Shown piece after piece: positions 1 through 59,895 of a DNA stretch of 64,000 nucleotides. Position numbers and translations under genes: made by a program. The notes under the pieces are model-generated. The model did not search any database, was not told the origin of the DNA, and was given only the letters and a program-made list of their open reading frames with translations. The stretch comes from Candidatus Bathyarchaeota archaeon (GTDB lineage: Archaea; Thermoproteota; Bathyarchaeia; Bathyarchaeales; Bathycorpusculaceae). Position 1 is the stretch's first letter. Each line of letters opens with the position of its first letter. Location: contig JAOZIH010000003.1 in the NCBI GenBank assembly GCA_026014545.1, positions 1 to 64,000 on the forward strand, written 5' to 3'.

Positions 1-193
1 AGCCGCAGCCGAAGTTTCTGCCTCCGACCACTATGACGCCTGCTTTGGCTTTCTCGGGGAAAGCTGGGTCTAATCCTTCCATGGCGTGCTTTGCCAGCTC
101 ATGCGGGTCTGTTAACACAAGGTATTTTCCTGGCAGAATCACGTCTGTGTCAACGTTATTTCCGAACTTTACGGCTTTCCCTGCTACTTTCAT
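1..193 (-). CDS. leuD: 3-isopropylmalate dehydratase small subunit, partial
   Basis: N-terminal fragment (about 64 residues) of the small swivel-domain subunit of isopropylmalate isomerase, which with LeuC interconverts 2- and 3-isopropylmalate in leucine synthesis. The start MKVAGKAVKFGNNVDTDVI and the later run VVGGRNFGCG match LeuD/aconitase swivel domains, where DTD and the GxNFGCGSSRE loop are conserved. The ATG overlaps the leuC stop codon (ATGA), so the pair is probably translationally coupled. The gene leaves the window at position 1, so the rest of the catalytic loop cannot be seen. Confidence 0.93.
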   Translation of the reverse strand, partial: MKVAGKAVKFGNNVDTDVILPGKYLVLTDPHELAKHAMEGLDPAFPEKAKAGVIVVGGRNFGCG

Positions 194-1464
194 GCCTTGT
201 TTCCCTCCAGTTCGCGTGGGTCAGTTATTCTGCCTGTTATGGCGGATGCGGCAACAGTGGCTGGCGACGCAAGATAAACTTTTGCTTCTGTGCTGCCCAT
301 TCTGCCTATGAAGTTTCGGTTTGAAGTGCTAACGCATGTTTCGCCCGCAGCCAGCAAGCCTATGTGTCCGCCGAGGCATGGGCCGCATGTGGAGCCGCAT
401 ACCATGGCGCCTGCTTCCGTGAAAATCTCTATCAGCCCCTCCTTTAGCGCTTGCAAGTAAACTTCCTGCGAAGCGGGAATAACCAGAGTTCTCACGCCTT
501 CTTTGATTTTTCTTCCTTTCAGAATTTCCGCTGCAACGCGGAGGTCTTCGATTCTGCCGTTGGTGCAGGAGCCGATGAAGGCCTGCTCTACCTGCACGTT
601 GCTCATTTCAGAGGCGGGTTTCACGTTGTCCACCGATGCGGGATACGCAACCTGCGGCGTCAACTCTGTCACGTCAATGTCTACGACCTTCTCATATTCA
701 GCGTCAGCGTCGCTCTTTAAGGATTCAAAAGGCGGCAGCGGCTTGGTTGTTCTGCCTTCTAGGAATTTGCGTGTGGCTTCGTCTGGCTCAACTATGCCGT
801 TTTTGCCGCCCATCTCCACAGTCATGTTGCACAAGGTCATTCTGCCGGCTATGCTCATGCCGCGTATGGTTGGCCCAGCGAACTCGACGCTTTTGTAGGT
901 TGCACCGTCAACGCCCAGCTTACCGATTATATGCAGAATCAAGTCTTTAGGCGCCACGTACTTCTGGAATTGGCCTGTAACGTTTATTTTGATGGCCTCA
1001 GGCACCTTTAGCCAAATTTTTCCTGTGGCGAAGACCGCCGCGGCTTCTGTTGAGCCTATGCCTGTTGCGAAGGCTCCGAAGGCTCCGTAAGTGCACGTGT
1101 GCGAATCTGCACCTAGGATAACGGTGCCGGGCAGCACATGTCCCTTTTCGGGCATGACTTGATGGCATATGCCGCCTCTTCCAACGTCGTAGATTCGTAT
1201 TTTCTGTTCTTTAGCGAATTGGCGTAGCATTTTGTGCAGTTCCGCGGCTTTGACAGATTCCGCTGGCACCTGATGGTCGAGGATTATCACTATTTTTTGG
1301 TTGTCCCAGACGCGGTTGACGCCTATGCGTTTGAAGGCTTCGATGGCTAATGGTCCTGTTAAATCGTGAACCATTACCATGTCCACTTTGGCGTCCACTA
1401 TTTCGCCTGGGTGCACCACGCCTTTGTTTGATGCTTTGGCTAGGATTTTCTCGGTTATGTTCAT
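190..1464 (-). CDS. leuC: 3-isopropylmalate dehydratase large subunit
   Basis: Large [4Fe-4S] subunit of isopropylmalate isomerase (aconitase superfamily, LeuC/HacA group). The three cluster ligands are visible: Cys in GSCTNGR (about residue 300) and the two cysteines of STCGPCLGG (about 360-363). ADSHTCTYGAFG and the C-terminal SNRNFIGRMG substrate motif are also intact, and the length of about 424 residues is normal. I prefer the ATG at 1464 over the one at 1479, because a GGAG sits 9 nt before 1464 and MNITEKIL is the usual N-terminus. It lies third in ilvB-ilvN-leuC-leuD. A homologous aconitase-type substrate (homoaconitase, citramalate pathway) is possible, but the ilv/leu context favours leucine synthesis. 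Confidence 0.95.
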   Translation of the reverse strand: MNITEKILAKASNKGVVHPGEIVDAKVDMVMVHDLTGPLAIEAFKRIGVNRVWDNQKIVIILDHQVPAESVKAAELHKMLRQFAKEQKIRIYDVGRGGICHQVMPEKGHVLPGTVILGADSHTCTYGAFGAFATGIGSTEAAAVFATGKIWLKVPEAIKINVTGQFQKYVAPKDLILHIIGKLGVDGATYKSVEFAGPTIRGMSIAGRMTLCNMTVEMGGKNGIVEPDEATRKFLEGRTTKPLPPFESLKSDADAEYEKVVDIDVTELTPQVAYPASVDNVKPASEMSNVQVEQAFIGSCTNGRIEDLRVAAEILKGRKIKEGVRTLVIPASQEVYLQALKEGLIEIFTEAGAMVCGSTCGPCLGGHIGLLAAGETCVSTSNRNFIGRMGSTEAKVYLASPATVAASAITGRITDPRELEGNKA

Positions 1465-1511
1465 GTTCTCATACTCCATTCATGTGACTTTAAAATGGAA
1501 AAGGGTTGATT

Positions 1512-2027
1512 TTACTCTTCGATTCTAATTGAGTGCAAGCCCCGCGCTAGTGCGGTTACGCCTGTTCGGGCGATCTCTATTATGCCGTAAGGTTTCATGA
1601 GGTTTAGGAAGGCTTCTATCTTGTCAGATGTGCCCGTAATCTCTATTATCAAGGTTTCCGGCGAAACGTCAATTATGTGTCCTCTAAAGACTTCGACGCA
1701 GTTTATTATGTCCGTGCGTGTTTTCGCGTCAGGCGCGTTTACTTTAATAAGCGCAAGCTCGCGGCTTACTATGTTTTCTGGCTCCAGCCTGCCGACTTTG
1801 ATGACGTCGATTAGTTTGTTCATTTGTTTGACTACTTGCTCAAGGGTTTTTTCATCGCCGCTAACAGTTATCGTCATCCTTGCCACGCCTTTCTGCTCGG
1901 TGTGGCCGACGGTTATGCTTTCTATGTTAAAGTTTCTGCGCCTGAACATGTTCGCTACGCTATGCAGTACACCTGGCTTGTTCTCGACAAGGGCGGCGAT
2001 AACAATGGTTTTCTGGTTGTTTTCCAT
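1512..2027 (-). CDS. ilvN: acetolactate synthase small (regulatory) subunit
   Basis: Regulatory subunit of acetohydroxyacid synthase. It begins with an ACT domain (VIAALVENKPGVLHSVANMF, then RRRNFNIESITVG), followed by the C-terminal IlvN/IlvH domain that stimulates the catalytic subunit and binds valine. At 171 residues it has normal IlvH length. The ATG at 2027 overlaps the ilvB stop (TGATG), which argues for it over the TTG three bases upstream. The gene order is ilvB-ilvN-leuC. The enzyme makes acetolactate and acetohydroxybutyrate for valine, leucine and isoleucine. Confidence 0.95.
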   Translation of the reverse strand: MENNQKTIVIAALVENKPGVLHSVANMFRRRNFNIESITVGHTEQKGVARMTITVSGDEKTLEQVVKQMNKLIDVIKVGRLEPENIVSRELALIKVNAPDAKTRTDIINCVEVFRGHIIDVSPETLIIEITGTSDKIEAFLNLMKPYGIIEIARTGVTALARGLHSIRIEE

Positions 2028-3739
2028 CAATAATCACCTATCTGCTGGCCTAAACCGCATCCCGGAGGCACCATAGGCTCCACATCCTCTTCCGAGTTTA
2101 TGGGCACATCTATGACCGTGGTTACCGTGCTCTTCAACGCCTGCTTCACTGCTTTTTCAAATTCAGCGATTGACTCGACGCGGAAGCCTTGGGCGCCGTA
2201 TGCCTCCGCCAGCTTGACGAAGTCAGGTGACCTGCCGAGCTTCACTGCCATGTAGCGTTTCTTGTAGAAGAGGCGTTGCCACTGGGCGACCATGCCGAGG
2301 ACGCCGTTGTTGAGGACGATGACTGTGACTGGGATATCCTCTACTACGCTGCATGCCAGCTCCTGCTCAGTCATGATGAAGCTGCCGTCGCCCGCTATGT
2401 CCACCACGTGTCTGTCGGGACAAGCGGTTTTGGCGCCTATTGCCGCTGGGAAGCCGAAGCCCATTGTGCCTAGGCCGCCGCTGCTTATGAATGTACGTGG
2501 TTTCAGGGCTTTGAAGTAAAGCGCTGCCCACATCTGGTTCTGCCCCACTTCCGTGGTGACTATTGTGCTTTCGGGCAGTAGCTTTCGCAGAGTTTGCAGC
2601 AGCCGCTTAGGTTTCAACTTGCCGTCTTCGGCTTTTTCTGGGGGATTCAGCAGTTTCCTCGCCTCGTTGATGCGCTGAAGCCATGGGCTGTCTGTTTTCT
2701 TTTTAACTTGCTTGATTAGCCGCTCGTATATGGCGCTTAGCGCTTGTTTCGCGTCGGCTACGATGGGCACGTCAACTTCGATGTTTTTGCCGATTTCCGC
2801 AGCGTCGATGTCTATGTGGATTTTTTTGGCTTCGGGGCAGAACGAGTCCAAGTTGCCTGTAGCACGGTCAGCAAATCTGGTGCCCACTGCTAAGAGCACA
2901 TCCGCCTCCAGCAGCATCTTGTTCGCGAGCGGATTGCCATGCATGCCGATATTGCCCAAACTAAGCGGATGTATCTCCGGAAAGCTGCCTTTACCCATGA
3001 ATGTTGTGGCTACGGGTGCCAGAAGCAGCTCCGCCACCGTCAGCAGCTCGTCTGAGGCGTTCGCTGTTATGACGCCGCCGCCCGCTAGGATAATGGGTCG
3101 CTCCGCTTCCACCAGCAGCTCTACGGCTTTGCGTATCTGCAGCGGATGCGGCGGCCCTGCAACTCGGTAGCCGCGTAAATCAATTTTGCCGTCGAAACTG
3201 ACTTCAGCGACGTCGGTTTGCACGTTTTTAGGAACATCTATCAACACAGGACCCGGCCTTCCAGTCGTGGCAATGTAAAAGGCAGCATTTACTGCCCAGG
3301 GAATCTCCGCAGCCGAGCGCACCTGATGGTTGTATTTGGTTATGGGCGTCGTAATGCCAATGATGTCTGCTTCTTGGAAAGCGTCTCTGCCTATCATGTA
3401 GCTACTGTTCGAACCGTTTGTTGGAACCTGGCCTGTGATGGCTATGACAGGCGAGGAATCCATATGCGCGTTCGCTATGCCCGTAACCAGGTTGGTGGCG
3501 CCTGGACCGCTGGTGGCGAAGCAGACGCCTGGTCTGCCTGAAGCACGTGCGTAGCCGTCAGCAGCGTGCGCAGCGCACTGTTCGTGTCTGGAGAGTATAT
3601 GTCTCAGTTTCGGGTGGCGGCATAACTCATCGTACACGGGTAGTATGGCTCCGCCTAGGATGCCGAAGATGTGCTTGACGCCTTGGCGTTCCAGAGCCTC
3701 AAGCAGCGCTTTTGCCCCGGTCATTTTAGTTGCAGACAT
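2027..3739 (-). CDS. ilvB: acetolactate synthase large (catalytic) subunit
   Basis: ThDP-dependent acetohydroxyacid synthase. The N-terminal PYR domain has the catalytic glutamate in SRHEQCAAHAADGYAR; a central DHAP-like domain follows; the C-terminal PP domain has the Mg-ThDP motif beginning GDGSF and ending LNN. The length of about 570 residues is normal. The frame also has an ATG at 3763, but GAGGAG lies about 12 nt before the ATG at 3739 and nothing similar precedes 3763, so I use 3739 (start MSATKMTGAKALLEAL). The stop overlaps ilvN. A leader of about 200 nt with predicted secondary structure lies upstream (see separate entry). Confidence 0.95.
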   Translation of the reverse strand: MSATKMTGAKALLEALERQGVKHIFGILGGAILPVYDELCRHPKLRHILSRHEQCAAHAADGYARASGRPGVCFATSGPGATNLVTGIANAHMDSSPVIAITGQVPTNGSNSSYMIGRDAFQEADIIGITTPITKYNHQVRSAAEIPWAVNAAFYIATTGRPGPVLIDVPKNVQTDVAEVSFDGKIDLRGYRVAGPPHPLQIRKAVELLVEAERPIILAGGGVITANASDELLTVAELLLAPVATTFMGKGSFPEIHPLSLGNIGMHGNPLANKMLLEADVLLAVGTRFADRATGNLDSFCPEAKKIHIDIDAAEIGKNIEVDVPIVADAKQALSAIYERLIKQVKKKTDSPWLQRINEARKLLNPPEKAEDGKLKPKRLLQTLRKLLPESTIVTTEVGQNQMWAALYFKALKPRTFISSGGLGTMGFGFPAAIGAKTACPDRHVVDIAGDGSFIMTEQELACSVVEDIPVTVIVLNNGVLGMVAQWQRLFYKKRYMAVKLGRSPDFVKLAEAYGAQGFRVESIAEFEKAVKQALKSTVTTVIDVPINSEEDVEPMVPPGCGLGQQIGDY

Positions 3740-3827
3740 TTCTTTCTGATACTCCTCTTTCATGTTTAGAATAATGACTAGACATATGCCTCAACGAATT
3801 GCTGGGGAAGAATTTATTTGTAGCTGT

Positions 3828-3927
3828 CACGGCGGCGATAGGGCATGGGCTAAATAAAGCAGTCTGCCGATACCCGGCGATCCCAGCTATTGAGGTAGCG
3901 ATCCCTCACTAAATTTTTGCCTCCGTG
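3828..3927 (-). ncRNA. candidate structured leader RNA of the ilvB operon
   Basis: This element fills much of the gap between leuA and ilvB and would lie in the 5' leader of ilvB. On the minus strand a 9-nt arm CACGGAGGC can pair with GCCGCCGTG about 90 nt downstream (8 of 9 pairs). Inside it, AGGG can pair with CCCT, TGGG with CCCA, and small hairpins GCTA/TAGC and GCC/GGC are possible. On the plus strand the octamer GCGATCCC occurs twice, 21 bp apart. The GC-rich element stands out from the AT-rich flanks. I do not recognise it as a known riboswitch class or a tRNA. Function in branched-chain amino-acid control is inference. Confidence 0.4.
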
Positions 3928-3960
3928 AAGCAACACGTTCCGTAAAGACTACTGTATGTT

Positions 3961-3970
3961 TATTTAAAAA
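3961..3970 (-). promoter_or_regulatory. TATA box, ilvB operon
   Basis: The minus strand reads TTTTTAAATA here. Archaeal transcription would start about 25 nt downstream, near 3940, giving a leader of about 200 nt that begins just before the structured element at 3927. Placement is by sequence only. Confidence 0.4.
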
Positions 3971-4014
3971 GTTTATGGTTTCCGGATATTCTACTGAGGC
4001 TTTGTTTTAGCCTA

Positions 4015-5499
4015 TTAAGATTTGTTGTTGTAGTCTGTTGTTAGCACGTTCATGGCGCCGAGCACTGCGTCAATGCTTGCCATCACGATGTCTTCGCGTA
4101 CGCCCATGGCTGTGGCTGTTCGGTTGCCTTTGCGCATGCGCACCACCACTTCCACCATGGCGTCTGTTCCGCCAGTAATCGCCTTCACGTTATACTGCTC
4201 CAGATGAATCTGCTCCACTTCCGCAATAGCCTTTTTCACAGCATTTATAGCCGCGTCCACTGGACCCACGCCTATGGCGGCGCCGTTAACCTCTTTGCCA
4301 TTCAGCTTCAGCCTGACTGAAGCGGTTGGCGTAACAGTGTTGCCGCTGACCACTGTTATCTCCTGCAGCTGAATCGCTTTTTTGGCGCTCAAGCCAAGCA
4401 CGTTTTCCGCAATCGCCAGTAAATCCGCGTCCGTTACCATTTTACCTTTATCGCCGACGCTTTTCACACGCGCTTGTATCTCCTTCAGCTGCTCCTCCGT
4501 AGGCGTCAAGCCCATTGCAGCCAAAGCCGCTTTTAACCCAGCGGAACCCGCATGTTTCCCAGGCGCCAGCCGCCTTGTGCCTCCGACCAACTCAGGCGCA
4601 ATAGCTTCATAGGTAGAAGGATGTGCAAGCATGCCCTGCGTGTGGATTCCCGACTCATGTGTAAACGCGTTTTCGCCTACTATCGCCTTGTTCGGCTGCA
4701 CGTAAATGCCTGTTAAACGCGAAACCAGCTGTGAAGTGCTATACAGCAGTTCAGTTTTGATGTCCACGTTCAGCTTGTAAAGAGCTTTCAGCGAAACCAC
4801 AATCTCCTCAAGCGACGCGTTTCCAGCGCGCTCGCCCAAACCGTTTATTGTAGCGTGGAACTGGTTTGCGCCTGCACGAAGCGCCGCGATAGTGTTCGCC
4901 ACTGCCATGCCGAAGTCGTTGTGGCAGTGCACACTGATGACTGGCACTGTCAGCGACCGCCGCAACTCAGCGAATAACTCGTAAGAACGCTCAGGCGTTA
5001 GCACACCTACGGTGTCGCATGCAACTACGCGATCCGCGCCTGCTTCAATGCCCGTAGCGAAAACCTTCTTCAGAAACTCCACATCCGCCCGTGAAGCATC
5101 CTCAGCTGATAACTCTACGATTAAGCCGCAGTCCTTGGCGTATCGCACCATGTCCCGCGTAATCTGCAGCACCTGTTCGCGCGTCTTCCGAAGCTTCGCC
5201 TCAATATGCAAGTCAGAAACGGGAATGATGAGATGTATGCTGTCCGCGCCGCTTTTAGCCACCGCGTCAATGTCGCCTTTTGTGCCGCGTGCTGCACTGC
5301 AAATCTCCGCTTTCAAACCAGCATCAGCAATGAGCTTCACCGCCTCCATTTCACCCTCAGAAACAGCCGCGAAACCAGCCTCGATAACGTCAACGCCTAA
5401 TTCGTCCAGACGCTGTGCTATACGCAGCTTGTTTTCAGGTGTTAAAGAGACTCCAGGGGTTTGTTCGCCATCGCGTAGTGTAGTGTCAAAAACTCTTAT
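4015..5499 (-). CDS. leuA: 2-isopropylmalate synthase (or citramalate synthase), non-standard start
   Basis: Condenses acetyl-CoA with a 2-oxo acid. The HMGL-like TIM barrel starts with FDTTLRDGEQTPGVSLT, has the metal ligands in HCHNDFGMA and the GLGERAGNASLEE motif, and ends in a LeuA allosteric (dimerisation) domain. Taken from 5499 it has 494 residues, normal for archaeal LeuA/CimA. The first ATG in frame (5349) would remove about 50 conserved residues including the catalytic FDTTLRDGEQ. The frame is open back to a TGA at 5544, but contains no ATG, GTG or TTG. An ATA at 5499, directly before RVFDTTLRDG, fits the family N-terminus. A TATA-like GATATAAAT at 5543-5535 would place the transcript start near 5513. 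The alternatives are ATT at 5529 or a sequence error. Confidence 0.88.
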   Translation of the reverse strand: MRVFDTTLRDGEQTPGVSLTPENKLRIAQRLDELGVDVIEAGFAAVSEGEMEAVKLIADAGLKAEICSAARGTKGDIDAVAKSGADSIHLIIPVSDLHIEAKLRKTREQVLQITRDMVRYAKDCGLIVELSAEDASRADVEFLKKVFATGIEAGADRVVACDTVGVLTPERSYELFAELRRSLTVPVISVHCHNDFGMAVANTIAALRAGANQFHATINGLGERAGNASLEEIVVSLKALYKLNVDIKTELLYSTSQLVSRLTGIYVQPNKAIVGENAFTHESGIHTQGMLAHPSTYEAIAPELVGGTRRLAPGKHAGSAGLKAALAAMGLTPTEEQLKEIQARVKSVGDKGKMVTDADLLAIAENVLGLSAKKAIQLQEITVVSGNTVTPTASVRLKLNGKEVNGAAIGVGPVDAAINAVKKAIAEVEQIHLEQYNVKAITGGTDAMVEVVVRMRKGNRTATAMGVREDIVMASIDAVLGAMNVLTTDYNNKS

Positions 5500-5534
5500 C
5501 TTCTCAGGGAAACGGTTAGATAAAGCAATACCCC

Positions 5535-5543
5535 ATTTATATC
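5535..5543 (-). promoter_or_regulatory. TATA box, leuA
   Basis: GATATAAAT on the minus strand. The expected start of transcription, about 26 nt downstream near 5513, would leave a leader of about 14 nt before the conserved N-terminus of LeuA. It would exclude in-frame codons upstream of 5513 as starts. Confidence 0.4.
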
Positions 5544-5675
5544 ACACACAAACCACAACAAGACAACCCGCCAACATATAAAACTTACGATTTACCAATC
5601 CATAGAAAACCCCAAACAAACGCTGATGTCTGAAAGCCTCTCTCCACCATCCAAACTCACAGGGCACTTCCACCA

Positions 5676-5727
5676 TCATATTTGGCGCCTATTAGCGATT
5701 CTATGCAGAAACCTATAGAGGGGGTCT
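5676..5727 (+). repeat. dispersed intergenic repeat, copy A
   Basis: One of at least three closely similar copies of about 47 bp in the window (others at 21799-21846, minus strand, and 59783-59829). Each starts with TCATATTTGGCG, has TATTAG at the same offset, and ends with GCAGAAACCTATAGAGGG, with no length differences between copies. This copy sits between the divergent leuA and moeA genes, 54 bp before moeA. It shares the following GGGTCT with the degenerate fourth copy near 59.87 kb. The remaining gap sequence (5545-5675) shows nothing I can name. Confidence 0.75.
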
Positions 5728-5780
5728 ACTTCAGCAGCTTTGCTCAGTTTTTCTCGATACATTTTTTACAGTAAGCCACA

Positions 5781-7046
5781 ATGCTCTATGCTGAGGATGG
5801 CGTGTTGGCAAGGTTAAAGGGTTTCCAAAAACTAACATTTGCGGATGAGGCACTGCAAAAGTGGCTGGGCACTTTGCAAATTAGCCCGCCGCGTCAGGTT
5901 ACTGTGTCTCTCGGTGAAGCGCTTAACCGTGTTTCCGCAGTGGATATAACCGCGCAAGAGGATCTGCCACGGTTCGACCGCTCAGCTGTTGACGGCTACG
6001 CGCTTAAGGCTGAAGACACCACAGGCGCATCCCAATTCAAACCCGTGGTATTGAGCCTAACTGCGTCAGACACTATAGCCACAAAGCAAGCACGGCAAAT
6101 CTGGACGGGGAATCCGCTTCCAAGAGGCGCCGACGCCGTTGTTATGCTGGAAAATACCAAGCTACGCGATGGAAAACTGGAAGTTTGGACTCAACTCGCA
6201 AAAGGAGGAAATGTGTCAAAAAAAGGAGAAGACGTCAAAAAAGGCGATAAAATCATCAAAGCAGGCACGAGGCTGTCGCCTTATCACTTGGCGTTGCTTG
6301 CCGCGTTAGGCAACAGCGAAATCAAAGTTGCGGAAAAACCGCAAATCGGCATTTTAGCCACGGGAAACGAGCTTGTGGAAGCAGGCGCCACGCCGTCTGA
6401 AAACCAAATTTACGAATCAAACCGCGTAATGCTCTCAGCGTTATGCCGCGAAATCGGTGCAGAACCAGTGGACTTCGGCATCGCCAAAGATGACTTGGCA
6501 GAAATAACTGAAAAACTAAAGGCTGCGCTGCAAAAATGCGATGCTGTAGTCACTTCTGGCGGCACCAGCGTCGGCGGCTTCGACCTCGTTCCAGAAGCAG
6601 TCAACAACTTGGGCAAACCAGGCGTAATTACGCACGGCGTAGCCATAAGGCCTGCTATGCCAACCGCTCTTGCAGTGGTCGAGGGTAAACCAGTTTTGAT
6701 TCTTTCAGGCAATCCTGTCGCTGCAGCCATCGGCTTCGAAGTGTTTGGGAGACCCTTAATCTGCAAGCTGCTTGGGATGCCTCAGACAGAGCAGCGTCCA
6801 GTAGTTAACGCGGTTATGGCAAGGCGAGTGGCTACTGCGCTTGGGAGAAAAACCTTCGTGCGTGTTCACGTAACTATTCGAAATGGCGTTTTCATCGCCG
6901 AGCCCATCAGCGCACGCGGTTCAGGCATAATCTCTACGATGACGCGGAGCAACGGCTTCGTCATCGTTCCAGAAAACAGAGAAGGCGTCGCAGAAGGCGA
7001 AAGCGTGATGGTGCATCTGTTTGGAAGTGTGGAGGAAGAGCGCTGA
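5781..7046 (+). CDS. moeA: molybdopterin molybdenumtransferase, paralogue 1
   Basis: MoeA-type enzyme that inserts molybdate or tungstate into adenylated molybdopterin. The signature PRFDRSAVDGYAL-like segment lies near residue 70, the MoCF/MogA-like fold carries SGGTSVGGFDLVP, the loop LSGNPVAAA corresponds to the family's LPGNPVS, and a C-terminal beta-barrel domain follows. It has 421 residues, full MoeA length. The gene is followed without a gap by a second moeA, the stop being one base before the next ATG. The first residues (to about GFQKLT) are longer than usual, so a downstream GTG at 5805 is an alternative start. Confidence 0.93.
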   Translation: MLYAEDGVLARLKGFQKLTFADEALQKWLGTLQISPPRQVTVSLGEALNRVSAVDITAQEDLPRFDRSAVDGYALKAEDTTGASQFKPVVLSLTASDTIATKQARQIWTGNPLPRGADAVVMLENTKLRDGKLEVWTQLAKGGNVSKKGEDVKKGDKIIKAGTRLSPYHLALLAALGNSEIKVAEKPQIGILATGNELVEAGATPSENQIYESNRVMLSALCREIGAEPVDFGIAKDDLAEITEKLKAALQKCDAVVTSGGTSVGGFDLVPEAVNNLGKPGVITHGVAIRPAMPTALAVVEGKPVLILSGNPVAAAIGFEVFGRPLICKLLGMPQTEQRPVVNAVMARRVATALGRKTFVRVHVTIRNGVFIAEPISARGSGIISTMTRSNGFVIVPENREGVAEGESVMVHLFGSVEEER

Positions 7047-7047
7047 T

Positions 7048-8295
7048 ATGTTTAGGCGGCTAATGACGTTTGACGAGGCGAAAAAGGTAATTGACGAGCA
7101 GTTGAAGCTTAAGCCGTTAGGTGCAGAAGAAATCTCCCTTTTGGAAGCCTACAATCGCGTTCTCGCAGAAGACGTAGTCGCCACCTTGGATATTCCGCCT
7201 TTCAACAGGTCAACGGTTGACGGTTACGCTGTGAAAGCCGCTGACACTTTCGGCGCCGAGGAAAACCAGCCTGTGCAACTGCGAATCTGCGGCTCAGTTA
7301 GCGTGGGCGAACCGCCGAAAATCACAGTTAACCCAGGAGAAGCCGCGGAAATCGTTACAGGCGCGCCTATTCCAGAAGGAGCAGATGCCGTGGTAATGGT
7401 TGAAGACACTGATAGAGACGGCGACTTGCTGCGCGTTTACCGCGCTGTAACACGCGACGAGAATGTAATGAAAAAAGGCGCTGACATAAAAAAGGGCGAA
7501 ACAGCGCTTAAAGCTGGCCAAGTTTTAGGCGCTTCCGAAATAGGCGTCTTGGCCGCTTTAGGCTTCGCTAAAGCCAAAGTTTTCAAAGCGCCAGTGGTTG
7601 CAGTTCTCTCAACAGGCGCGGAAGTAACTGAACCGGGCAAGCCTTTGCCTCCGGGGAAAATCTATGACATAAACGCTTACAGCCTCAGCACGGCAGTTCG
7701 TGAAAGCGGCGGGAAACCCCTCTATTTAGGCGTAATTCCAGACGACAAAGCAGCGCTGCGAACAGCGCTGGAGCGCGCACTGGCTTCTGCAGACATGGTG
7801 GTAACCTCTGGCGGAGTTTCCGTCGGACCCAAAGATTTGACACCGCAGACAGTAGCGGCTTTAGGCGAGCCTGGCCTACTCGTCTGCGGCATAGCGGTTA
7901 AGCCTGGAAAACCAACGACCATAGCTCTTGTCGGCGAGAAGCCTGTTTTCGCGCTTCCTGGACATCCTGCTTCTACGCTTTTGATGTTCCATCTGCTTGT
8001 ACGCCCAGTTATCCAACTCATGTCTGGCAGAACAGCACGTGAGGACAGGGCGGTTAAGGCGCTGGCGGCAACACGGATGTTTTCGGCTAAGGGCAGGCGA
8101 ACCTTCGTTATGGTTAAATTAAAGCATGATGAGCTCAAGCGGCTTGTCGCTGTGCCCGTGGAGACAGGTGCTTCTGGGGCAATAACAACGCTTGCGAAGG
8201 CTGATGGGTTCGTAGAGATTCCTGAAAACCAGCAGTTCATCGATTCAGACGAAGAAGTTACGGTTACGCTCCTAAAGAGTACGCTGCTTTTATGA
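7048..8295 (+). CDS. moeA: molybdopterin molybdenumtransferase, paralogue 2
   Basis: Second MoeA, about 415 residues, with [44 protein letters not shown] and [10 protein letters not shown] in the standard order. The ATG at 7048 lies one base after the stop of the first copy, with GGAGG about 12 nt upstream; the upstream TTG at 7021 would lie inside the first gene and gives no family match. The loop residues differ between the paralogues (LSGNP against LPGHP). In archaea with two MoeA proteins a split between molybdenum and tungsten, or between different target enzymes, has been proposed. That is inference here. Confidence 0.94.
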
Positions 8296-8646
8296 TTCCT
8301 GCAGTTTTCTTTTTGCTGCTACGTACGCGGTAACCACCCATGTCAGAATAGCGTATGCAGCCATGCTTATGCTTACAAGCCAGTTGCTGAAGGCAATTAC
8401 ATACAGCGTGTAAAGGGAAAGTGTGGTGCCAACAGCGAACAAGGCGACAACAAGCCACATCGCCCAAGCTCTTTTCTTAAAGATGCCGTAAGCAGCGATT
8501 AGGTTGATTATTCCAGTTAAGCCTATGTGAGGCGGAAAGTTGGCGAAGGGCAAAAGCACGAGAAATATTATGCCAACTGCACCGTAGAAAGCAACCGGCG
8601 CTAACCTGCGTGCGTCTGCAGTTTTAAGTTTGGATGCAAAGGACAT
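8290..8646 (-). CDS. small four-helix membrane protein, unknown
   Basis: About 118 residues with four hydrophobic segments (roughly 18-37, 44-60, 70-90 and 96-114 from the ATG at 8646) and short basic loops ending in [10 protein letters not shown] do not recognise a family. The ATG at 8646 gives MSFASKLKTADARRLAP; the in-frame TTG at 8673 only adds nine residues. It converges with moeA, the two 3' ends overlapping by 6 bp. An AT-rich promoter region shared with the divergent gene lies upstream. Confidence 0.6.
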   Translation of the reverse strand: MSFASKLKTADARRLAPVAFYGAVGIIFLVLLPFANFPPHIGLTGIINLIAAYGIFKKRAWAMWLVVALFAVGTTLSLYTLYVIAFSNWLVSISMAAYAILTWVVTAYVAAKRKLQES

Positions 8647-8714
8647 ATTTTTAACCGCCTTAAACCTTAGCAAGTGACTGCTTAATTAATAAATTTAATG
8701 TTCAGATTTCTAAG

Positions 8715-8724
8715 CTTAAAAATT
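8715..8724 (+). promoter_or_regulatory. TATA box of the membrane-hydrolase-like gene
   Basis: CTTAAAAATT lies about 50 nt before the TTG at 8771. Transcription would begin near 8745, downstream of the ATG at 8732, which favours the TTG start for that gene. Confidence 0.35.
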
Positions 8725-8770
8725 CTAATATATGAAATTATATGATTTATACGGGTTCGAGGAAAACAGG

Positions 8771-9271
8771 TTGCCTTTCACGCCATTTCATCTGGGGCCT
8801 GCGCTCTTTTTTGGCTTGCTCCTATCCGCGGTGTTTGATTTTCCAACTTTTCTGATAGCTAATGTGCTGCCAGACGTAGAGCCTTTTGCAGTTTCATTCT
8901 TCAGTATCCGCGGTTATCCGCCTCACGGCTTTTTTCACTCTTACATCGGCGCGATAATTCTCGCGCTTGCTCTTGCGTTTTGCATGTATTTTCTAAGGGG
9001 ATTTCCTGGTAAGGTCATGATGGCTTTCCGGCTTCAGCAACGTTCTTCTTTCAAGAAAATAATTTTCGCCGCGTTCACGGGCTCTTATTTCCATGTGTTT
9101 TTGGATTCTTTTCTTTACAGTGAAATGATGCCCTTTTACCCATTGCAAGTCAACGTGTTTTCAGCCTATGGCAACAGCACTGCCATCTATGGTTTCTGTG
9201 TAGTCACCGCGCTTTTAGGAATAACCTTATATTTGTATAAAATTCGGAAGGGCTTGGCTATTTTGGGTTAA
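8771..9271 (+). CDS. YdjM/DUF457-like predicted membrane-bound metal-dependent hydrolase
   Basis: About 166 residues with four or five membrane segments. The N-terminus PFTPFHLGPALFFG, the conserved NVLPDVEPF and HGFFHSYIGA, and the later YFHVFLDSFLYS give the scattered His/Asp pattern of the membrane hydrolase family related to YdjM (LexA-regulated DUF457) and DUF4184. I choose TTG at 8771 because family members begin M-P-F-T-P-x-H-x-G-P, GAGG lies just upstream, and the TATA box would exclude the ATG at 8732. Substrate and role are unknown. Confidence 0.65.
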   Translation: MPFTPFHLGPALFFGLLLSAVFDFPTFLIANVLPDVEPFAVSFFSIRGYPPHGFFHSYIGAIILALALAFCMYFLRGFPGKVMMAFRLQQRSSFKKIIFAAFTGSYFHVFLDSFLYSEMMPFYPLQVNVFSAYGNSTAIYGFCVVTALLGITLYLYKIRKGLAILG

Positions 9272-9369
9272 ACGCGTAGAAACCTGTGAGCAGCAACATT
9301 TTTCTGGATTGAAGGCGAAAAAGTTTAGAGCAACTCATGTAGTAAGCAGTTTAAAAGGGACTGAGCACG

Positions 9370-10269
9370 ATGAGTAATTGGGAACTGTTCGTTTCGCAAT
9401 CCAATGTTTTCAGCGGTTTTCAAAAGTCTTTCGAAAAATCGCGGTACGTGATTTTCGGTGTTCCGTTTGATGTTACAAGCACCTACCGGACTGGCGCGCG
9501 TTTTGGTCCCACAGCCATCCGTCAAGCGTCATTGAATATTGAAACCTACAGTTTCCGCGCTGGAGTGGATGTTGAGGATGTGCCTCTGCATGACTTGGGC
9601 GACTTGCATGTTTCCACAAGCCCCGAGAAAACTGTGGATATGCTGAGGCAAGTGATTGAGGATATTTTGGCCGCGGGCAAGATGCCGATAGCGATTGGCG
9701 GCGAGCACACAATAACCTTGGGCGTAATGAAGGGCTTCGGCGGTAAAGCTAAAGAAACTGCTGTGGTAAGCTTTGATGCACATCTGGACTTGCGCCAGGA
9801 GTTTATGGGGTTAACGCTTTCGCACACCACTTTCATGCAGCTGATAAACGAGGAAGTTAAGCCGGCGAAAATTGTTGAAGTAGGCACAAGAGCCGTGTGC
9901 CGCGATGAGTTGGCTTATGCCAAAAAGGCGGGAATACCATTTTTCACGGCGAATCAAATGCGGAAAGAGGGAACAGCGCAGATAATAAAGCAGCTTAAAG
10001 AGCTACTTGCGCCGTATAAGTACGTTTACTTGACGGTTGACATGGACGTTCTTGATCCTGCTTTCGCGCCTGCGGTGCAGAATCCAGAATCCGAAGGTAT
10101 AGAAACACATGCTTTGCTGGATATTTTGTGCGCGCTCTGCGATAAGCGGGTAGTTGGGTTCGATGTTGTCGAGGTTGCGCCTATTTACGATCAAGGAATT
10201 TCAGCAGTTGCCGCTGCTAAAGTGATTTTCGAAATGCTCTGCCAGCTTGAGAAGGCGCGTAAAGGCTAA
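9370..10269 (+). CDS. speB: agmatinase / arginase-family ureohydrolase
   Basis: Binuclear manganese ureohydrolase, probably cleaving agmatine to putrescine and urea. The metal-binding motifs are GGEHT (about residue 115), DAHLD (about 138-142) and DMDVLDPAFAPA (about 223-234), and the C-terminal VVGFDVVEVAP is also conserved. The length, 299 residues, is typical. Archaea make polyamines from arginine by arginine decarboxylase plus this type of enzyme; no decarboxylase is in the window. Arginase or guanidinobutyrase activity cannot be excluded from sequence. Confidence 0.88.
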   Translation: MSNWELFVSQSNVFSGFQKSFEKSRYVIFGVPFDVTSTYRTGARFGPTAIRQASLNIETYSFRAGVDVEDVPLHDLGDLHVSTSPEKTVDMLRQVIEDILAAGKMPIAIGGEHTITLGVMKGFGGKAKETAVVSFDAHLDLRQEFMGLTLSHTTFMQLINEEVKPAKIVEVGTRAVCRDELAYAKKAGIPFFTANQMRKEGTAQIIKQLKELLAPYKYVYLTVDMDVLDPAFAPAVQNPESEGIETHALLDILCALCDKRVVGFDVVEVAPIYDQGISAVAAAKVIFEMLCQLEKARKG

Positions 10270-10476
10270 CTGTTATGCACGATGCAGTCCATAGCCCCAC
10301 TTATTTAAAGTCGCAAACGAAGCGCACCCTCACTTTGCAAAGAAAATTAGCTGAGAAAACCTGTTTGATCTCTTTTGACAAAATCTTTTTACCATCGGAA
10401 TAGCTTCCAGTATCAGTAAGAATAATCATGGATAGTGTCCCTGCATTTTAAAAAGAGCGGCAAAGAGGGCAAATTC

Positions 10477-11751
10477 ATGAGGCAAACACAGTGTACAATG
10501 GCAATCATTTTAACTCTACTAATGTTGGTGGCGGTTTTTCAATTTACCAACGTTTCATTCGCGAATTTTTTTTCAGATCCAGGTTCAGATTTGCCCCGTA
10601 TTTATATAAAAAGCGACGGCAGCGTTGAACCCGCGACAGCGCCAATCGAGAGAATAGGTAACCTCTACAAACTCAAAGAAGACATAACTATGAAAACAAT
10701 TGTGATTCAACGCGATAATATTGTTTTAGATGGCTCTCATCACCTAATTGAAGGAAACAAAAGCTGGATGGGACTCGCCACATTTTTCGGCGATGCCGGA
10801 AACAACGGTATAATCATCACTGGAAGAAACAACATTAACATTACAAATCTATATATAGAAAGGTTTACTACTGGAATAAGAATTTCCAATTCTTCATACA
10901 TCAACATATTTGGAAATAGTTTCAAAGAAGAAACCGCGGTTTTTGACACCCCCGCTGGCATAACAATTGAAGTCTCTTCACATGTTCTAATTGAAAACAA
11001 CATCTTCACAAGTATTAATGGACCGGCTATCTTCTGCGATGGCGCAAACATCACAATCAGAGGGAATACTTTAATCGGCATATTCGATAGCATCGATGGC
11101 AGCATAGCCATTAAAGGCTCTTCAAATATAATAACAGATAACAAAATCGAAACGGTCTTCCCTTCAATAAGGCTGAGTGAAGCGAACGCTAACATAATCG
11201 CGAGAAACCACATTGAAGGCGGCATATCCCTCATTAGTAGCTCAAACAACATGATCTTCGGAAATAATCTGACAAGTATACGACTCATCTTTAGCTCAAA
11301 CAACACCATTCACGGCAATTGCATGACAAGTAACATTGGGCTAGATACAATAGAACTTGATCAAGGCACTGCAAACAATACTTTTTACGGAAACAGCTTT
11401 CCAGCAAACTGCAGTATTCGCATTAATGATGCAGGAACTAACTTCTGGGACAATGGCACCATGGGAAACTACTGGACTGATTATAACGGCACAGACAGCA
11501 ACGGTGATGGCATAGGCGATTCTCCCTACATAATACTTGGAGTCAAATGGGACAATGCTGTCGGTGGAGATGTAAGCTTCGTTGCTGGCTATGATAATTT
11601 CCCATTAATGGAGCCTTACAATATTGAACACGACGCCATCATATCGCCGCAAACTGAATCATCTCTCGCTCTACTGGTTGCTGCCGCCGTTGTCGTCGTT
11701 GTCGTGATTAGCGCCGGGTTTCCGATTTACTTCAAAAAACACAAACATTAA
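10477..11751 (+). CDS. secreted beta-helix (NosD-like) surface protein with C-terminal anchor
   Basis: About 424 residues. A signal peptide (MRQTQCTMAIILTLLMLV, then a cleavable stretch ending SFA) is followed by a short domain with RIYIKSDGSVEP. A right-handed parallel beta-helix region follows, rich in repeats such as NIFGNSF, NIIARNHI and TIHGNCM, as in NosD/CASH proteins. There is a calcium-loop-like DSNGDGIGDSPY near residue 340, and the C-terminus is a membrane segment ending FKKHKH. The ATG at 10477 is chosen because it starts the signal peptide and follows AGAGGG; the frame's GTG at 10435 only adds charged residues. The domain plan matches the interrupted gene at 58.5-59.7 kb. Probably an extracellular, membrane-tethered protein. 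Confidence 0.8.
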   Translation: MRQTQCTMAIILTLLMLVAVFQFTNVSFANFFSDPGSDLPRIYIKSDGSVEPATAPIERIGNLYKLKEDITMKTIVIQRDNIVLDGSHHLIEGNKSWMGLATFFGDAGNNGIIITGRNNINITNLYIERFTTGIRISNSSYINIFGNSFKEETAVFDTPAGITIEVSSHVLIENNIFTSINGPAIFCDGANITIRGNTLIGIFDSIDGSIAIKGSSNIITDNKIETVFPSIRLSEANANIIARNHIEGGISLISSSNNMIFGNNLTSIRLIFSSNNTIHGNCMTSNIGLDTIELDQGTANNTFYGNSFPANCSIRINDAGTNFWDNGTMGNYWTDYNGTDSNGDGIGDSPYIILGVKWDNAVGGDVSFVAGYDNFPLMEPYNIEHDAIISPQTESSLALLVAAAVVVVVVISAGFPIYFKKHKH

Positions 11752-11788
11752 GTAGTTATCTCGCTTCTTCAGTTTTTAGTCGAAAGCT

Positions 11789-11798
11789 TCATAAATAA
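11789..11798 (+). promoter_or_regulatory. TATA box, L7Ae ribosomal operon
   Basis: TCATAAATAA lies about 45 nt before the rpl7ae start, predicting a transcript start near 11820. A strong GGTGAGG ribosome-binding site follows at about 11828-11834. Confidence 0.45.
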
Positions 11799-11838
11799 GA
11801 AGTGTTGAATAGACTGTGCCTTTAAAGGGTGAGGCTAT

Positions 11839-12219
11839 ATGTCCAAACCATTCTATGTAAAATATGAAACGCCAAAAGAACTAGTAGACGCAGCCTATGA
11901 AGCCCTGCAGATTGCTTCAAAAACAGGCGTAGTTAGAAAAGGAACAAACGAGGCAACTAAAGCTGTTGAACGCGCTCAAGCGAAGCTTGTCGTAATCGCT
12001 GAAGACGTTGATCCGCCAGAAGTTGTTGCACATTTGCCGCTTCTTTGCGAAGAACGGAAAATTCCCTACGTGTTCGTTCCAAACAAGGATAAACTGGGCA
12101 ACGCGGTGGGCATTGAGGTTCCTGCTGCTTCGGCCTGCATCATAAAGGAAGGCGAAGCCGCTGGATTAATCAAAGAAATCATTGCACGGATTGAGCAGGC
12201 GAAAAGAGGAGCTCAGTGA
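11839..12219 (+). CDS. rpl7ae: ribosomal protein L7Ae
   Basis: Kink-turn-binding protein of the 50S subunit. In archaea it is also a core protein of C/D and H/ACA snoRNPs and RNase P. The 126 residues show the family signatures [33 protein letters not shown] and [25 protein letters not shown] sits five bases before the ATG. The stop overlaps the rps28e ATG (TGATG), so the two are coupled. Confidence 0.97.
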
Positions 12220-12449
12220 TGAGCAAAGACGAGAAAGCAGCAGCTGAAGAGGAGCTTACTCCTGCAGAAGTTATCCAAATAATCGGGCGTACAGGCGTAA
12301 CTGGCGAAATTACCCAGGTACGGGTGCGCATTCTGGAAGGAAAAGACAAAGGTCGCATTATTACGCGCAACGTTAAAGGTCCAGTGCGGGTTCAAGATAT
12401 TTTGATGCTGCGTGAAACTGAAAGAGAAGCAAAGAAAATTACCAGATAA
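12219..12449 (+). CDS. rps28e: ribosomal protein S28e
   Basis: Small-subunit protein, 76 residues, with the OB-fold core ([19 protein letters not shown], then [17 protein letters not shown]) and the conserved tail [13 protein letters not shown]. An acidic N-terminal extension ([17 protein letters not shown]) is longer than in many homologues. The ATG at 12219 overlaps the L7Ae stop; the GTG at 12216 is less likely. Second gene of the L7Ae-S28e-L24e unit. Confidence 0.97.
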
Positions 12450-12485
12450 AAAATGCATGGTCAAACAGTCTAAGAGGAGTTGCCG

Positions 12486-12683
12486 ATGCCTAAACCACGA
12501 AAATGTTCGTTTTGCGGTAACGATTTCCCAGCTGGCACTGGCATGATGTACGTGAGAAACGATGGCTCCATTCTATGGTTCTGTTCAAGCAAGTGCAAGA
12601 AAAGCTCGCTGGAGTTTAAGCGAGACGCACGCAAGCTCAAATGGACAACATACTTCGGCAAGGAAGAAAAAGGAAAAGCCTAA
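12486..12683 (+). CDS. rpl24e: ribosomal protein L24e
   Basis: Zinc-ribbon protein of the large subunit, 65 residues. Four cysteines form the zinc site (CSFCG near residue 7 and CSSKCKK near residue 36). The aromatic core [18 protein letters not shown] and KWTTYF are conserved. GAGGAG lies six bases before the ATG at 12486, whereas a TTG at 12480 would directly abut it, so the ATG is the start. In many archaea ndk and infB follow this trio; they are absent here. Confidence 0.95.
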
Positions 12684-12786
12684 GCTCGGAACCAACATTT
12701 TGCATAGTAATATCCAACCATTTTTCTTATATTGTTTCTTCAGTTAGCCGCTTGAGTTTTCCGCTGGGGTCTATTAAAATTGGAAT

Positions 12787-12803
12787 ATGTCTGATTCTGA
12801 CAT
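12787..12803. promoter_or_regulatory. 17-bp near-palindrome, possible operator
   Basis: ATGTCTGATTCTGACAT pairs with itself at seven of eight positions around a central base. It lies about 65 bp before the small gene at 12868 and upstream of its TATA-like TTTATTAATA (about 12828). The rest of the 180-bp gap is T-rich after rpl24e, which could act as a terminator. Confidence 0.25.
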
Positions 12804-12867
12804 GTGTTGCGCTTAGAAAGAACGGATTTATTAATACATGCGATACTCCCGTAAAGGGTAAAAGCAG

Positions 12868-13104
12868 ATGAGCACAAAAAAGAAAAATCAGAAACCCAAA
12901 AAAGTAAACCTGCTTAATCTGACTAATGCAAGAAGGACCTACATAATTAAAAAGGCTAAAGAAACTTTGAGGCAGCAGCGTCTAGAAGCAGAATTTTGGC
13001 AGTCTCTGGCTGAAGTTGAGAGATTAACTATAAATGGCTGCACAATTGATTTCGAAAACGGCACCATAAGCGGATTAACAACAGGCGAGCTGCTAAACCT
13101 CTAA
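12868..13104 (+). CDS. small basic protein, unknown
   Basis: 78 residues with a strongly basic N-terminus (STKKKNQKPKK) and a predicted amphipathic helix carrying many Arg/Lys/Gln residues (KKAKETLRQQRLEAEFW), followed by a short beta-like region (INGCTIDFENGTISGLT). A GGGTAAAAGCAG stretch precedes the ATG. I recognise no family. The basic helix would suit nucleic-acid binding, but this is inference. Confidence 0.55.
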   Translation: MSTKKKNQKPKKVNLLNLTNARRTYIIKKAKETLRQQRLEAEFWQSLAEVERLTINGCTIDFENGTISGLTTGELLNL

Positions 13105-13166
13105 CTTTTTCCATCCCAGTAGGTACTGCGAGTTTTCTCTTCTGTCAGCAGAAATAGCGTGAATTT

Positions 13167-13245
13167 TGGTAGCGGGGAGTAGATTTGAACTACTGATCTC
13201 TGGGTTATGAGCCCAGCGGGTTAATCCTGGCTACCCCACCCCGCT
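13167..13245 (-). tRNA. initiator tRNA-Met (CAU), CCA encoded
   Basis: The cloverleaf folds cleanly: acceptor AGCGGGG with CCCCGCT, anticodon stem CTGGG/CCCAG around loop CTCATAA, T arm with loop TTCAAAT, discriminator A and an encoded CCA. An A1:U72 first pair and three consecutive G:C pairs flanking the anticodon loop (GGG/CCC) are the hallmarks of initiator rather than elongator tRNA-Met. No intron is seen. The flanks 13105-13166 and 13246-13380 hold no gene; the right flank carries the AT-rich promoter region of the next gene. Confidence 0.95.
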
Positions 13246-13381
13246 ACGTGTACGATAGAGGCTGACGTTTCAAATCCGTTTAGTAACTACTAACTTGCCA
13301 AATATTAATAGTTTCTTTTTCACTTTTAGCGAAAGCATTTTAGCCGCGACAATAACTCTTTAACAAAGGAGCCAAAGGCGA

Positions 13382-14026
13382 ATGGACAAGCCATACTTAC
13401 GTGAGATATTCAAGCCAGCCCTAGAGAATCCAGTTTTTGTTCAAGGGCTTCCCGGCTTCGGCAATGTTGGGCGCATAGCCGCGCATCTTTTGACGAAGTT
13501 TTGCAGCGCCAAACCTTTTGCAGAATTATATTCCCCTTACTTTCCAGACTATGTATCTGTAAGCTCAAAGGGAATCTGCCTACTGCCAAAATACGAGTTC
13601 TACTTCGCGCCGATGGAGAAAAACAATCTTGTAATCATGACGGGAGATATACAGCCCTCGTTTGATGATGTTGTGGCGCATTATCATGTTTGCTCTGAAA
13701 TAGTAGATTTCATCGAGAAACTCGGCTGCCACTTCGTTATAACCCTAGGAGGAGTGCCCATGCTTGAAGATAAGCCTCAAGTGTACGTGGCAGCCACCTC
13801 GCCGAGGTTAGCCGCTGAATTCATGGAAAAAGGCGCCGTGATATACAGTAAAGGCAGAATAGTTGGGGGGACAGGGCTTACGCTGGCGCTTGCGAAAGAA
13901 CAAGGCATGGAAGGCGTGTGTTTACTTGGCAGTACGCCAGGTTTCAAGGCGGATCGCGGTGCTGGTTTTCTGGTTTTCAAGTTTTTGATGAAGGTTTTAG
14001 GAAAAGAAATAAAAGAAGGGTTATAA
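13382..14026 (+). CDS. PAC2 family protein (proteasome-assembly-chaperone-like)
   Basis: 214 residues with the PAC2 fold signatures VFVQGLPGFGNVGRIAAHLL, the central NNLVIMTGDIQPS and VITLGGVP, and the C-terminal GGTGLTLALAKEQGMEGVCLLG. Archaeal PAC2 proteins are related to the eukaryotic proteasome assembly chaperones Pac1/Pac2; their role in archaea is not settled. GGAG lies 10 nt before the ATG. A short membrane-protein gene follows 41 bp downstream. Confidence 0.85.
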   Translation: MDKPYLREIFKPALENPVFVQGLPGFGNVGRIAAHLLTKFCSAKPFAELYSPYFPDYVSVSSKGICLLPKYEFYFAPMEKNNLVIMTGDIQPSFDDVVAHYHVCSEIVDFIEKLGCHFVITLGGVPMLEDKPQVYVAATSPRLAAEFMEKGAVIYSKGRIVGGTGLTLALAKEQGMEGVCLLGSTPGFKADRGAGFLVFKFLMKVLGKEIKEGL

Positions 14027-14067
14027 GAAAAAGCATTAAGCTAAACACTCGTAAAGTAGGGTTCGCA

Positions 14068-14310: not shown

Positions 14311-14471
14311 GCAGTTTTTGCCTCAGATACCCCAGGGTGCATCATCGCAGTCAGCATTTTGGATTCTTCATCGGCATTTTCTAGAAAGCCGTTAGCGCAA
14401 TTATTAAATCTTCTTCGAACTTGCCGCGCCTTTGGAAAAGCATATAAAATATTCACAAAGGTATAAGGAGT

Positions 14472-15065: not shown

Positions 15066-15137
15066 TTACAGAAAATGCATGCTAAATATCTGAAAAGATA
15101 TGTTTATTAGGAACTGCGTAACTTATGGTGCGCTTTA

Positions 15138-15317: not shown

Positions 15318-15330
15318 AGGTGATGTGAAA

Positions 15331-21774: not shown

Positions 21775-21798
21775 AACGTCGCTTACCTGCTTTTCTAT

Positions 21799-21846
21799 AC
21801 CCTCTATAGGTTTCTGCAATGAATTTCTAATATGCGCCAAATATGA
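21799..21846 (-). repeat. dispersed intergenic repeat, copy C (inverted)
   Basis: Read on the minus strand it has the same landmarks as the copy at 5676: TCATATTTGGCG at 21846, TATTAG, then GCAGAAACCTATAGAGGG ending near 21799, without indels. It lies between hisI and the next gene, just before a TTTTAAATAAG TATA-like box at about 21864. Confidence 0.75.
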
Positions 21847-21912
21847 AGGCGCGGCACAGCACCTTTTAAATAAGTCACTATTAAAGTTAAACCAGACAAG
21901 GGGTTGCATGCG

Positions 21913-45230: not shown

Positions 45231-45238
45231 ATACGCGT

Positions 45239-52578: not shown

Positions 52579-52579
52579 G

Positions 52580-59782: not shown

Positions 59783-59829
59783 TCATATTTGGCGGCTATT
59801 AGTGGTTCATTGCAGAAACCTATAGAGGG
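59783..59829 (+). repeat. dispersed intergenic repeat, copy B
   Basis: TCATATTTGGCG, TATTAG and GCAGAAACCTATAGAGGG at the same offsets as copies at 5676 and 21799. Lies upstream of the interrupted surface-protein gene, in a 300-bp gap. Confidence 0.75.
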
Positions 59830-59853: not shown

Positions 59854-59895
59854 CCTATTTGCCAATCAATGCAGAAAACAGTAGAGGGGGTCTGC
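59854..59895 (+). repeat. degenerate repeat, copy D
   Basis: About 25 bp after copy B. Keeps CCTATTTGC, ATGCAGAAA and TAGAGGGGGTCT, matching copy A (5676) better than copy B at its 3' end; the first dozen bases are lost. It suggests tandem insertion or duplication. The rest of the gap to 60014 shows nothing named. Confidence 0.45.

What the first reader, a model, noticed from the sequence alone, without database searches (positions are those of the whole stretch)
5676..5727. Dispersed intergenic repeat of about 47 bp, at least three full copies in 64 kb
Copies at 5676 (+), 21799-21846 (-) and 59783 (+) share TCATATTTGGCG, TATTAG and GCAGAAACCTATAGAGGG with identical spacing, and a degenerate fourth lies at 59854. 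All are between genes, near promoters, with diverged middles but identical ends. This pattern suggests a mobile miniature element, a common regulator site or a small RNA family. I know of no described element with this sequence.
Basis: seen in the sequence. Interest (0 to 1): 0.55.

Follow-up and report, generated by a model that had tools for sequence, protein, structure and literature searches.

The report
Scattered DNA sites where chromosomes rearrange
An uncultured archaeon carries about fifty copies of a short DNA element between its genes, and when close relatives are compared the chromosome has been rearranged almost exactly at these copies, so they look like recombination points that reshuffle blocks of genes.

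Summary
In detail: three exact copies of a masked 47-bp consensus lie at 5676 (+), 21800-21846 (-) and 59783 (+), plus a shortened partner at about 59854. None is expected by chance. The genome, a Bathyarchaeota MAG, holds about 48 copies. All 47 analysed lie between predicted genes, in random orientation to them. Copies abound across several Bathyarchaeota genera. No RNA structure, terminal inverted repeat or target duplication was found.

The unexpected result concerns gene order. In the sister species, homology runs up to and through the element and then switches. Of 14 sister elements with both sides assignable, 13 join sides that belong to different elements here, and 1 is intact. Upstream always matches upstream, downstream always downstream. 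Of 33 testable non-element junctions in the window, 32 are conserved. A second genus at about 90% identity gives 0 intact of 7. A third, older pair (about 76%) is mostly intact, which goes against universality.

Best reading: recombination sites that shuffle gene blocks of about 32 kb. Whether a dedicated recombinase or passive repeat recombination does it is open. No enzyme was identified.

The parts
5667..5735 (+). Copy 1 (core 5676-5722; left extension and GGTCTACTT-type tail included). Between divergent predicted genes 4015-5349 (-) and 5781-7046 (+).
   Evidence: Left side (1-5722) is collinear with G001 contig C125, right side (5673-19205) with G001 contig C47: a rearrangement breakpoint exactly at the element.
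21797..21855 (-). Copy 2 (core 21800-21846), between co-directional predicted genes ending at 21774 and starting at 21913 (both +), on the opposite strand.
   Evidence: Not testable against G001: the matching contigs C47 and C91 end on either side.
59783..59829 (+). Copy 3, A unit of a tandem A+B pair, between predicted genes 58489-59472 (-) and 60015-61301 (-).
   Evidence: Left block matches G001 C46 up to about 168 bp before its element (about 1.3 kb of window sequence, 58458-59782, holding one predicted gene, is absent there); right block matches G001 C81 next to another element.
59854..59890 (+). Shortened B unit of the pair (CCTATTTGCCAATCAATGCAGAAAACAGTAGAGGGG), lacking about 11 bp relative to the B unit of L025.
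   Evidence: three other own copies have the same A+B arrangement (L008, L025, L039).

Best explanation
The repeats are short recombination sites scattered about every 32 kb along the chromosome. Recombination inside the element joins the left flank of one copy to the right flank of another, which inverts or otherwise rearranges the gene blocks between copies and keeps the element whole and in the same orientation at every junction. Shown: rearrangement breakpoints coincide with the element in two genera, flank polarity is preserved, spacing is over-regular, and the element bodies are homogenised within each genome. Inferred: that the exchange is catalysed at a defined place, most likely in the left half around the near-palindromic CTAWTAG (positions 10-16), by a dedicated site-specific recombinase not identified here.
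For: (1) Own genome vs G001 (same genus), 21 G001 copies examined: 14 have both sides assignable, 13 join sides belonging to different own copies, 1 is intact (L067=L021). Alignments end or start within about 270 bp of the element, many inside it (e.g. -974..+44 and -6..+1044 for the window's copy 1). (2) In every element-anchored match U pairs with U and D with D, same strand. (3) Control: of 33 non-element gene junctions in the searched part of the window with both genes placed, 32 are on one G001 contig, 1 is not; 13/1 against 1/32 gives Fisher p=1.4e-9. (4) Second genus, G083 vs G014, about 90% nucleotide identity: 7 of the G083 copies match a G014 copy next to the element on at least one side, 0 of 7 on both sides of one copy; L255 has U from one G014 copy and D from another. 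(5) Spacing CV 0.54 against 0.93 at random (0 of 5000), minimum gap 3.9 kb; neighbouring copies share orientation in only 9 of 32 cases (p=0.02); single-contig G126 CV 0.67 against 0.97 (p=0.002). (6) Left-end markers are unlinked from positions 17 onward and four gametes occur between them, while positions 17-36 behave as a block. (7) In G126, 6 of 20 loci carry a second inverted arm around CTATTAG, a layout like a tyrosine-recombinase core site.
Against: G126 vs G123 (genus g19, about 76% identity): of 5 matched copies, 3 are intact on both sides, one is intact for about 200 bp upstream, 1 is one-sided, so shuffling is not universal. No recombinase tracks the element: the zinc-ribbon integrase with three paralogs in G000 is absent from G002 and G019, fragmentary in G001, and present in genomes without the element; the fourth integrase is patchy. 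An element is no more like its U or D partner's element in G001 than like a random one, so the crossover point cannot be placed by ancestry. Position 9-10 is still partly linked to 17-20. All genomes named by title are MAGs or drafts.
Confidence: 0.5

Rival explanations
1. Passive repeat: the element is a short mobile or selfish repeat (MITE- or REP-like), or has some other use, and ordinary homologous recombination between its near-identical copies causes the rearrangements. No dedicated enzyme exists.
For: Patchy distribution (11 of 32 genomes of genus g12 have it), lineage-specific variants, homogenised copies. The more divergent copies of g19 show little shuffling, as expected if identity is what matters. 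Near-identical stretches of about 46 bp are shared by many own copies.
Against: No terminal inverted repeats, no hairpin, no target-site duplication. About 47 bp is short for homologous recombination; that minimum is recalled, not tested. No encoded transposase was linked to it.
Confidence: 0.3
2. Chromosome-architecture site: a binding site for a nucleoid or segregation protein (as matS is for MatP), spaced regularly for that purpose; rearrangements are a by-product.
For: Regular spacing of about 32 kb in the own genome and about 65 kb in G126, always intergenic, random orientation, strongly conserved core.
Against: Does not by itself predict that nearly every testable junction in g1 and g14 is rearranged exactly in the element. 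Patchy presence within one genus.
Confidence: 0.12
3. Assembly artefact: repeats made the assemblers join wrong flanks, so the apparent rearrangements are not real.
For: The genomes are metagenome drafts; G001 contigs have about 3x coverage by their names. 6 of 48 own sites lie within 1 kb of a contig end, about 2 expected. A G001 contig starts with a head-to-head fusion of two right halves.
Against: It would have to hit 13 of 14 sites in g1 and all 7 in g14, from assemblies with different naming styles (k147_ and NODE_); tangles normally end contigs rather than misjoin them (recalled). It does not explain the conserved core or spacing.
Confidence: 0.06
4. Small RNA family or cis-regulatory motif.
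For: Intergenic, conserved core with variable middle.
Against: Orientation to neighbouring genes 12/11/10/10; fold z-scores 0.49, -0.39, -0.83, 0.08; 0 consensus pairs in 82 sequences; no Rfam match other than a tRNA in the window.
Confidence: 0.02

Closest known systems
Chromosome flipping by the plasmid pTN3 integrase in Thermococcus (PMC5495485; abstract and search passages read)
   Same: Archaeal chromosomes heavily scrambled between close relatives; recombination with the outcome of homologous exchange.
   Different: There the integrase acts with low sequence specificity on paired segments as short as 104 bp; here breakpoints sit in one conserved 47-bp family present in tens of copies, and no integrase tracks it.
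Shufflon / conservative site-specific inversion systems (Rci/sfx and the like; recalled; PMC5903667 seen as search listing and abstract start)
   Same: Many related asymmetric sites, mixed orientation, rearrangement of the segments between them, polarity preserved.
   Different: Shufflons span a few kb and reshuffle one gene's ends (recalled); here sites span the whole chromosome and move blocks of about 32 kb. No linked recombinase found.
Archaeal XerA/dif (PMC2958812; passages read)
   Same: A short recombination site between inverted arms.
   Different: dif is one 28-bp site per chromosome in the replication termination region; this family has about 48 copies, and only some g19 copies show two inverted arms.
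MITEs and REP/REPIN elements (PMC10969869, PMC3116915; search listing and abstract starts)
   Same: Short, dispersed, intergenic, non-coding, lineage-specific variants.
   Different: No terminal inverted repeats, hairpin or target duplication; strong link to rearrangement breakpoints.
matS / MatP macrodomain sites (recalled)
   Same: Tens of copies at tens of kb.
   Different: Confined to one domain and not rearrangement points, as recalled.

Membership tests
MITE | Terminal inverted repeats | tested here: not met
   Best match within 20 nt of the ends of the consensus 7 of 10; 0 consensus pairs.
MITE | Target-site duplication | tested here: not met
   Flank word sharing equals shuffled flanks in 47 copies. 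Recombination between copies would erase it, so weak evidence.
MITE | Empty sites in relatives | not tested
   No orthologous empty site could be aligned; a trial in genus g12 was too divergent.
Site-specific recombination (shufflon-type) site | Segments between sites change order or orientation, site and polarity preserved | tested here: met
   13 of 14 in g1, 7 of 7 in g14; but mostly intact in g19.
Site-specific recombination (shufflon-type) site | Cognate recombinase encoded | tested here: inconclusive
   Tyrosine-recombinase genes present but neither type tested co-occurs with the element; serine recombinases not searched.
Site-specific recombination (shufflon-type) site | Exchange confined to a short core | tested here: inconclusive
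   Four-gamete and linkage patterns point to positions left of 17 and right of 36; ancestry of partners uninformative.
Site-specific recombination (shufflon-type) site | Alternative arrangements within one population | not testable with these tools
   No reads available.
Xer/dif | Single site per chromosome | tested here: not met
   About 48 copies.
REP/REPIN | Palindrome forming a hairpin | tested here: not met
   Fold z-scores 0.49, -0.39, -0.83, 0.08.
Structured small RNA family | Conserved covarying structure or Rfam membership | tested here: not met

The most novel reading that the evidence does not exclude
A genome-wide shufflon: a dedicated, still unidentified archaeal recombinase acts on about 50 regularly spaced sites so that the whole chromosome is a deck of gene blocks whose order is continually reshuffled, in several genera of Bathyarchaeota.
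Probability: 0.3. Interest if true: 0.88.

Novelty: new variant of a known kind. Interest (0 to 1): 0.68.

Why it matters
Gene order in prokaryotes is usually thought to decay by chance breaks, insertion sequences and ribosomal operons. Here a 47-bp family accounts for nearly all tested rearrangements between close species in two genera, which makes a testable model of programmed or at least channelled chromosome shuffling in an uncultured archaeal phylum. It also warns that MAG scaffolding and synteny work in this group should treat these sites with care.

Tried and rejected
RNA family: no fold, no covariation, no Rfam hit. Phage or plasmid origin: no hits in viral contigs or plasmids. A promoter or terminator role tied to gene direction: orientation random. 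The zinc-ribbon integrases of G000 as the enzyme: distribution does not fit. The second integrase type: patchy. Integrase genes 270-470 bp from an element in L219, L233 and L254 looked like a link, but L219 has what reads as a tRNA gene in between (seen by eye in the sequence, the usual target of such integrases) and L254 a gene, so I dropped it. Empty-site search in genus g12: homology 64-78%, no readable empty site; one hint that left flank and right flank of two G109 copies adjoin in element-free G105 rests on a 109-bp match and is not used. Crossover mapping by partner identity: uninformative. Resemblance to archaeal origin boxes was considered from memory and not tested. Offset matches L243-L267 and L234-L148 were left out of the g14 count. 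Weakest of the 13 g1 cases: L119 (134-bp U match) and L120 (74% identity, 50-85 bp short of the element). Papers: searches listed no paper whose title or abstract start described this element; only open-licence PMC text was searched.

Full report
What was reported. A repeat of about 47 bp at 5676, 21799-21846 and 59783, with a degenerate fourth at 59854. All are there: three exact hits to a masked consensus, none in 100 shuffles with up to 3 mismatches, and a B-type partner whose right end is at 59871-59888.

How many. The window lies in contig C36 of a 1.86 Mb, 41-contig genome. The 18-bp right end has 37 exact copies and 54 within three mismatches (1 for the reversed control). A 45-bp masked pattern finds 48 within three mismatches, 0 for the control. 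Forty-seven ungapped copies were analysed; four entries of the table are second (B) units of tandem pairs 57-70 bp after an A unit (L008, L025, L035, L039). Information content falls to background left of about -9 and right of about +50. The variable middle comes as a few blocks (TGGTTCATT, AGATTCATT, AAATTCATT, CGATTCTAT, CCAATCAAT), the last mostly with GCAGAAAACAGTAG.

Where. None of the 47 copies lies in a predicted gene (home-made gene finder trained on the window). Relative to the element the neighbours are >E> 12, <E< 11, >E< 10, <E> 10, and 4 lack a neighbour on one side. Spacing is more even than random: 32 gaps within contigs, mean 32 kb, CV 0.54 against 0.93 (0 of 5000); on C33 alone CV 0.50, p=0.010. 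In G126, a single contig of 2.73 Mb, 42 listed sites give CV 0.67 against 0.97, p=0.002. Adjacent own copies have the same orientation in 9 of 32 pairs (p=0.02); a runs test shows no such pattern in G126.

Who has it. An exact pattern hits 28 stretches in the public genome collection, all titled Candidatus Bathyarchaeota, and none in viral contigs; a consensus has no match in plasmids. By matching contig lengths G001 is isolate SKW11, G014 is A05DMB-2, G002 is SRBZ_1 and G083 is SRBZ_5. G126 has 47, G123 41, G109 82.

The key result. I oriented every copy and compared flanks between the own genome and G001, whose flanks are mostly 77-87% identical. Homology runs from the locus edge to the end of the element and stops, or begins at the element and runs to the other edge. 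The window's copy 1 is typical: its left side, -974..+44, matches one G001 element (L117), and its right side, -6..+1044, matches another (L113). At larger scale window 1-5722 lies on G001 C125 and 5673-19205 on G001 C47. Of 21 G001 copies, 14 had both sides assignable: 13 combine sides of two different own copies, one (L067 with L021) is intact. All matches anchored at the element pair U with U and D with D. The window's copy 3 also has its sides on two G001 contigs, C46 and C81, each next to an element. Copy 2 cannot be tested because G001 contigs end there.

Control. In the searched parts of the window (1-39000 and 44001-64000), 33 non-element gene junctions had both genes placed in G001: 32 on one contig, 1 on two contigs (47528|47774, beside a PadR-like gene); 21 more were unplaced. 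Elements 13 of 14 against 1 of 33 otherwise gives p=1.4e-9. The two sets differ in extent: the element count is genome-wide, the control is this window.

A second genus. G083 and G014 are about 90% identical in aligned flanks. Of the copies in 26 G083 loci compared with 26 G014 element loci, 7 matched next to the element on at least one side and none on both sides of the same copy; L255 takes U from the G014 copy at C37:209.6k and D from that at C37:94.0k. Only part of G014's copies had been fetched.

A third genus goes the other way. For 20 of 47 G126 copies against 20 of 41 G123 copies, five matched: L196, L200 and L204 are intact on both sides, L199 keeps about 200 bp upstream before an integrase region, L201 matches on one side only. 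These copies are more diverged from the model and may be inactive; this is inference.

Inside the element. In the own genome, left-end markers (-9 to -4) are not linked to any position from 9 on (p 0.18 to 0.97), 9-10 are linked to 17-20 (p<0.001) but not to 33-36, and 17 to 36 behave as one block. Four-gamete pairs are common across 10-17 and 36-44 and nearly absent within 17-36. This fits exchange at CTAWTAG and near TAGAGGG, but conserved stretches carry no markers, so it is not proof. In sister-species pairs the element bodies show no trace of their partner, so they have been homogenised. In G126, 6 of 20 loci have TATTWGCCGC-CTATTAG-NNTCCAAATA, inverted arms around a 7-bp centre, the layout of tyrosine-recombinase cores (established knowledge).

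Enzyme. PF00589 is found in 53 of 60 genomes, with and without the element. The own genome has four: three zinc-ribbon paralogs (77-85% identical; the ribbon read from the sequence, not a library hit) and one shorter protein. Neither type follows the element.

Verdict. The repeat is real, abundant and old. In two genera it marks nearly all tested rearrangement breakpoints. I read it as recombination sites that shuffle gene blocks, at 0.5, with passive repeat recombination at 0.3.

Noticed in passing
L159, L160, L161 (own genome C33:503944, C6:72888, C27:7457): Three zinc-ribbon tyrosine recombinase paralogs, 77-85% identical, one 0.7 kb from an element; the G001 counterpart (C118:29-334) is a fragment with internal stops.
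   Followed up: partly
L282:1-120 and L281:1132-1201 (G001 C97 and C73): Contig C97 begins with two element right halves joined head to head at GGCGCC; its first 61 bases equal, on the other strand, the right side of the element on C73. Either an alternative junction in the population or an assembly artefact.
   Followed up: partly
own-genome contigs C7, C15, C23, C24, C25, C37: 6 of 48 element sites lie within 1 kb of a contig end, about 2 expected (p=0.02), a possible sign of mixed arrangements in the sample.
   Followed up: partly
window 47100-47800: The only non-element junction in the tested part of the window that differs from G001, beside a PadR-like regulator gene; insertion or rearrangement not resolved.
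   Followed up: partly
L284, L285 (G109) and L069, L138, L139, L140 (G025): Tandem A+B pairs of the element 60-100 bp apart are frequent in other genera, and g12, g14 and g19 copies have a longer conserved tail (CTATTGGCG... CAAACCATGTTGAAAA).
   Followed up: no
G083 C49 (L233) and C35 (L254), G123 C9 (L219): Integrase genes lie 270-470 bp from an element on its left side, two of them (G083) with an N-terminal zinc-ribbon-like motif read by eye; probably coincidence.
   Followed up: partly
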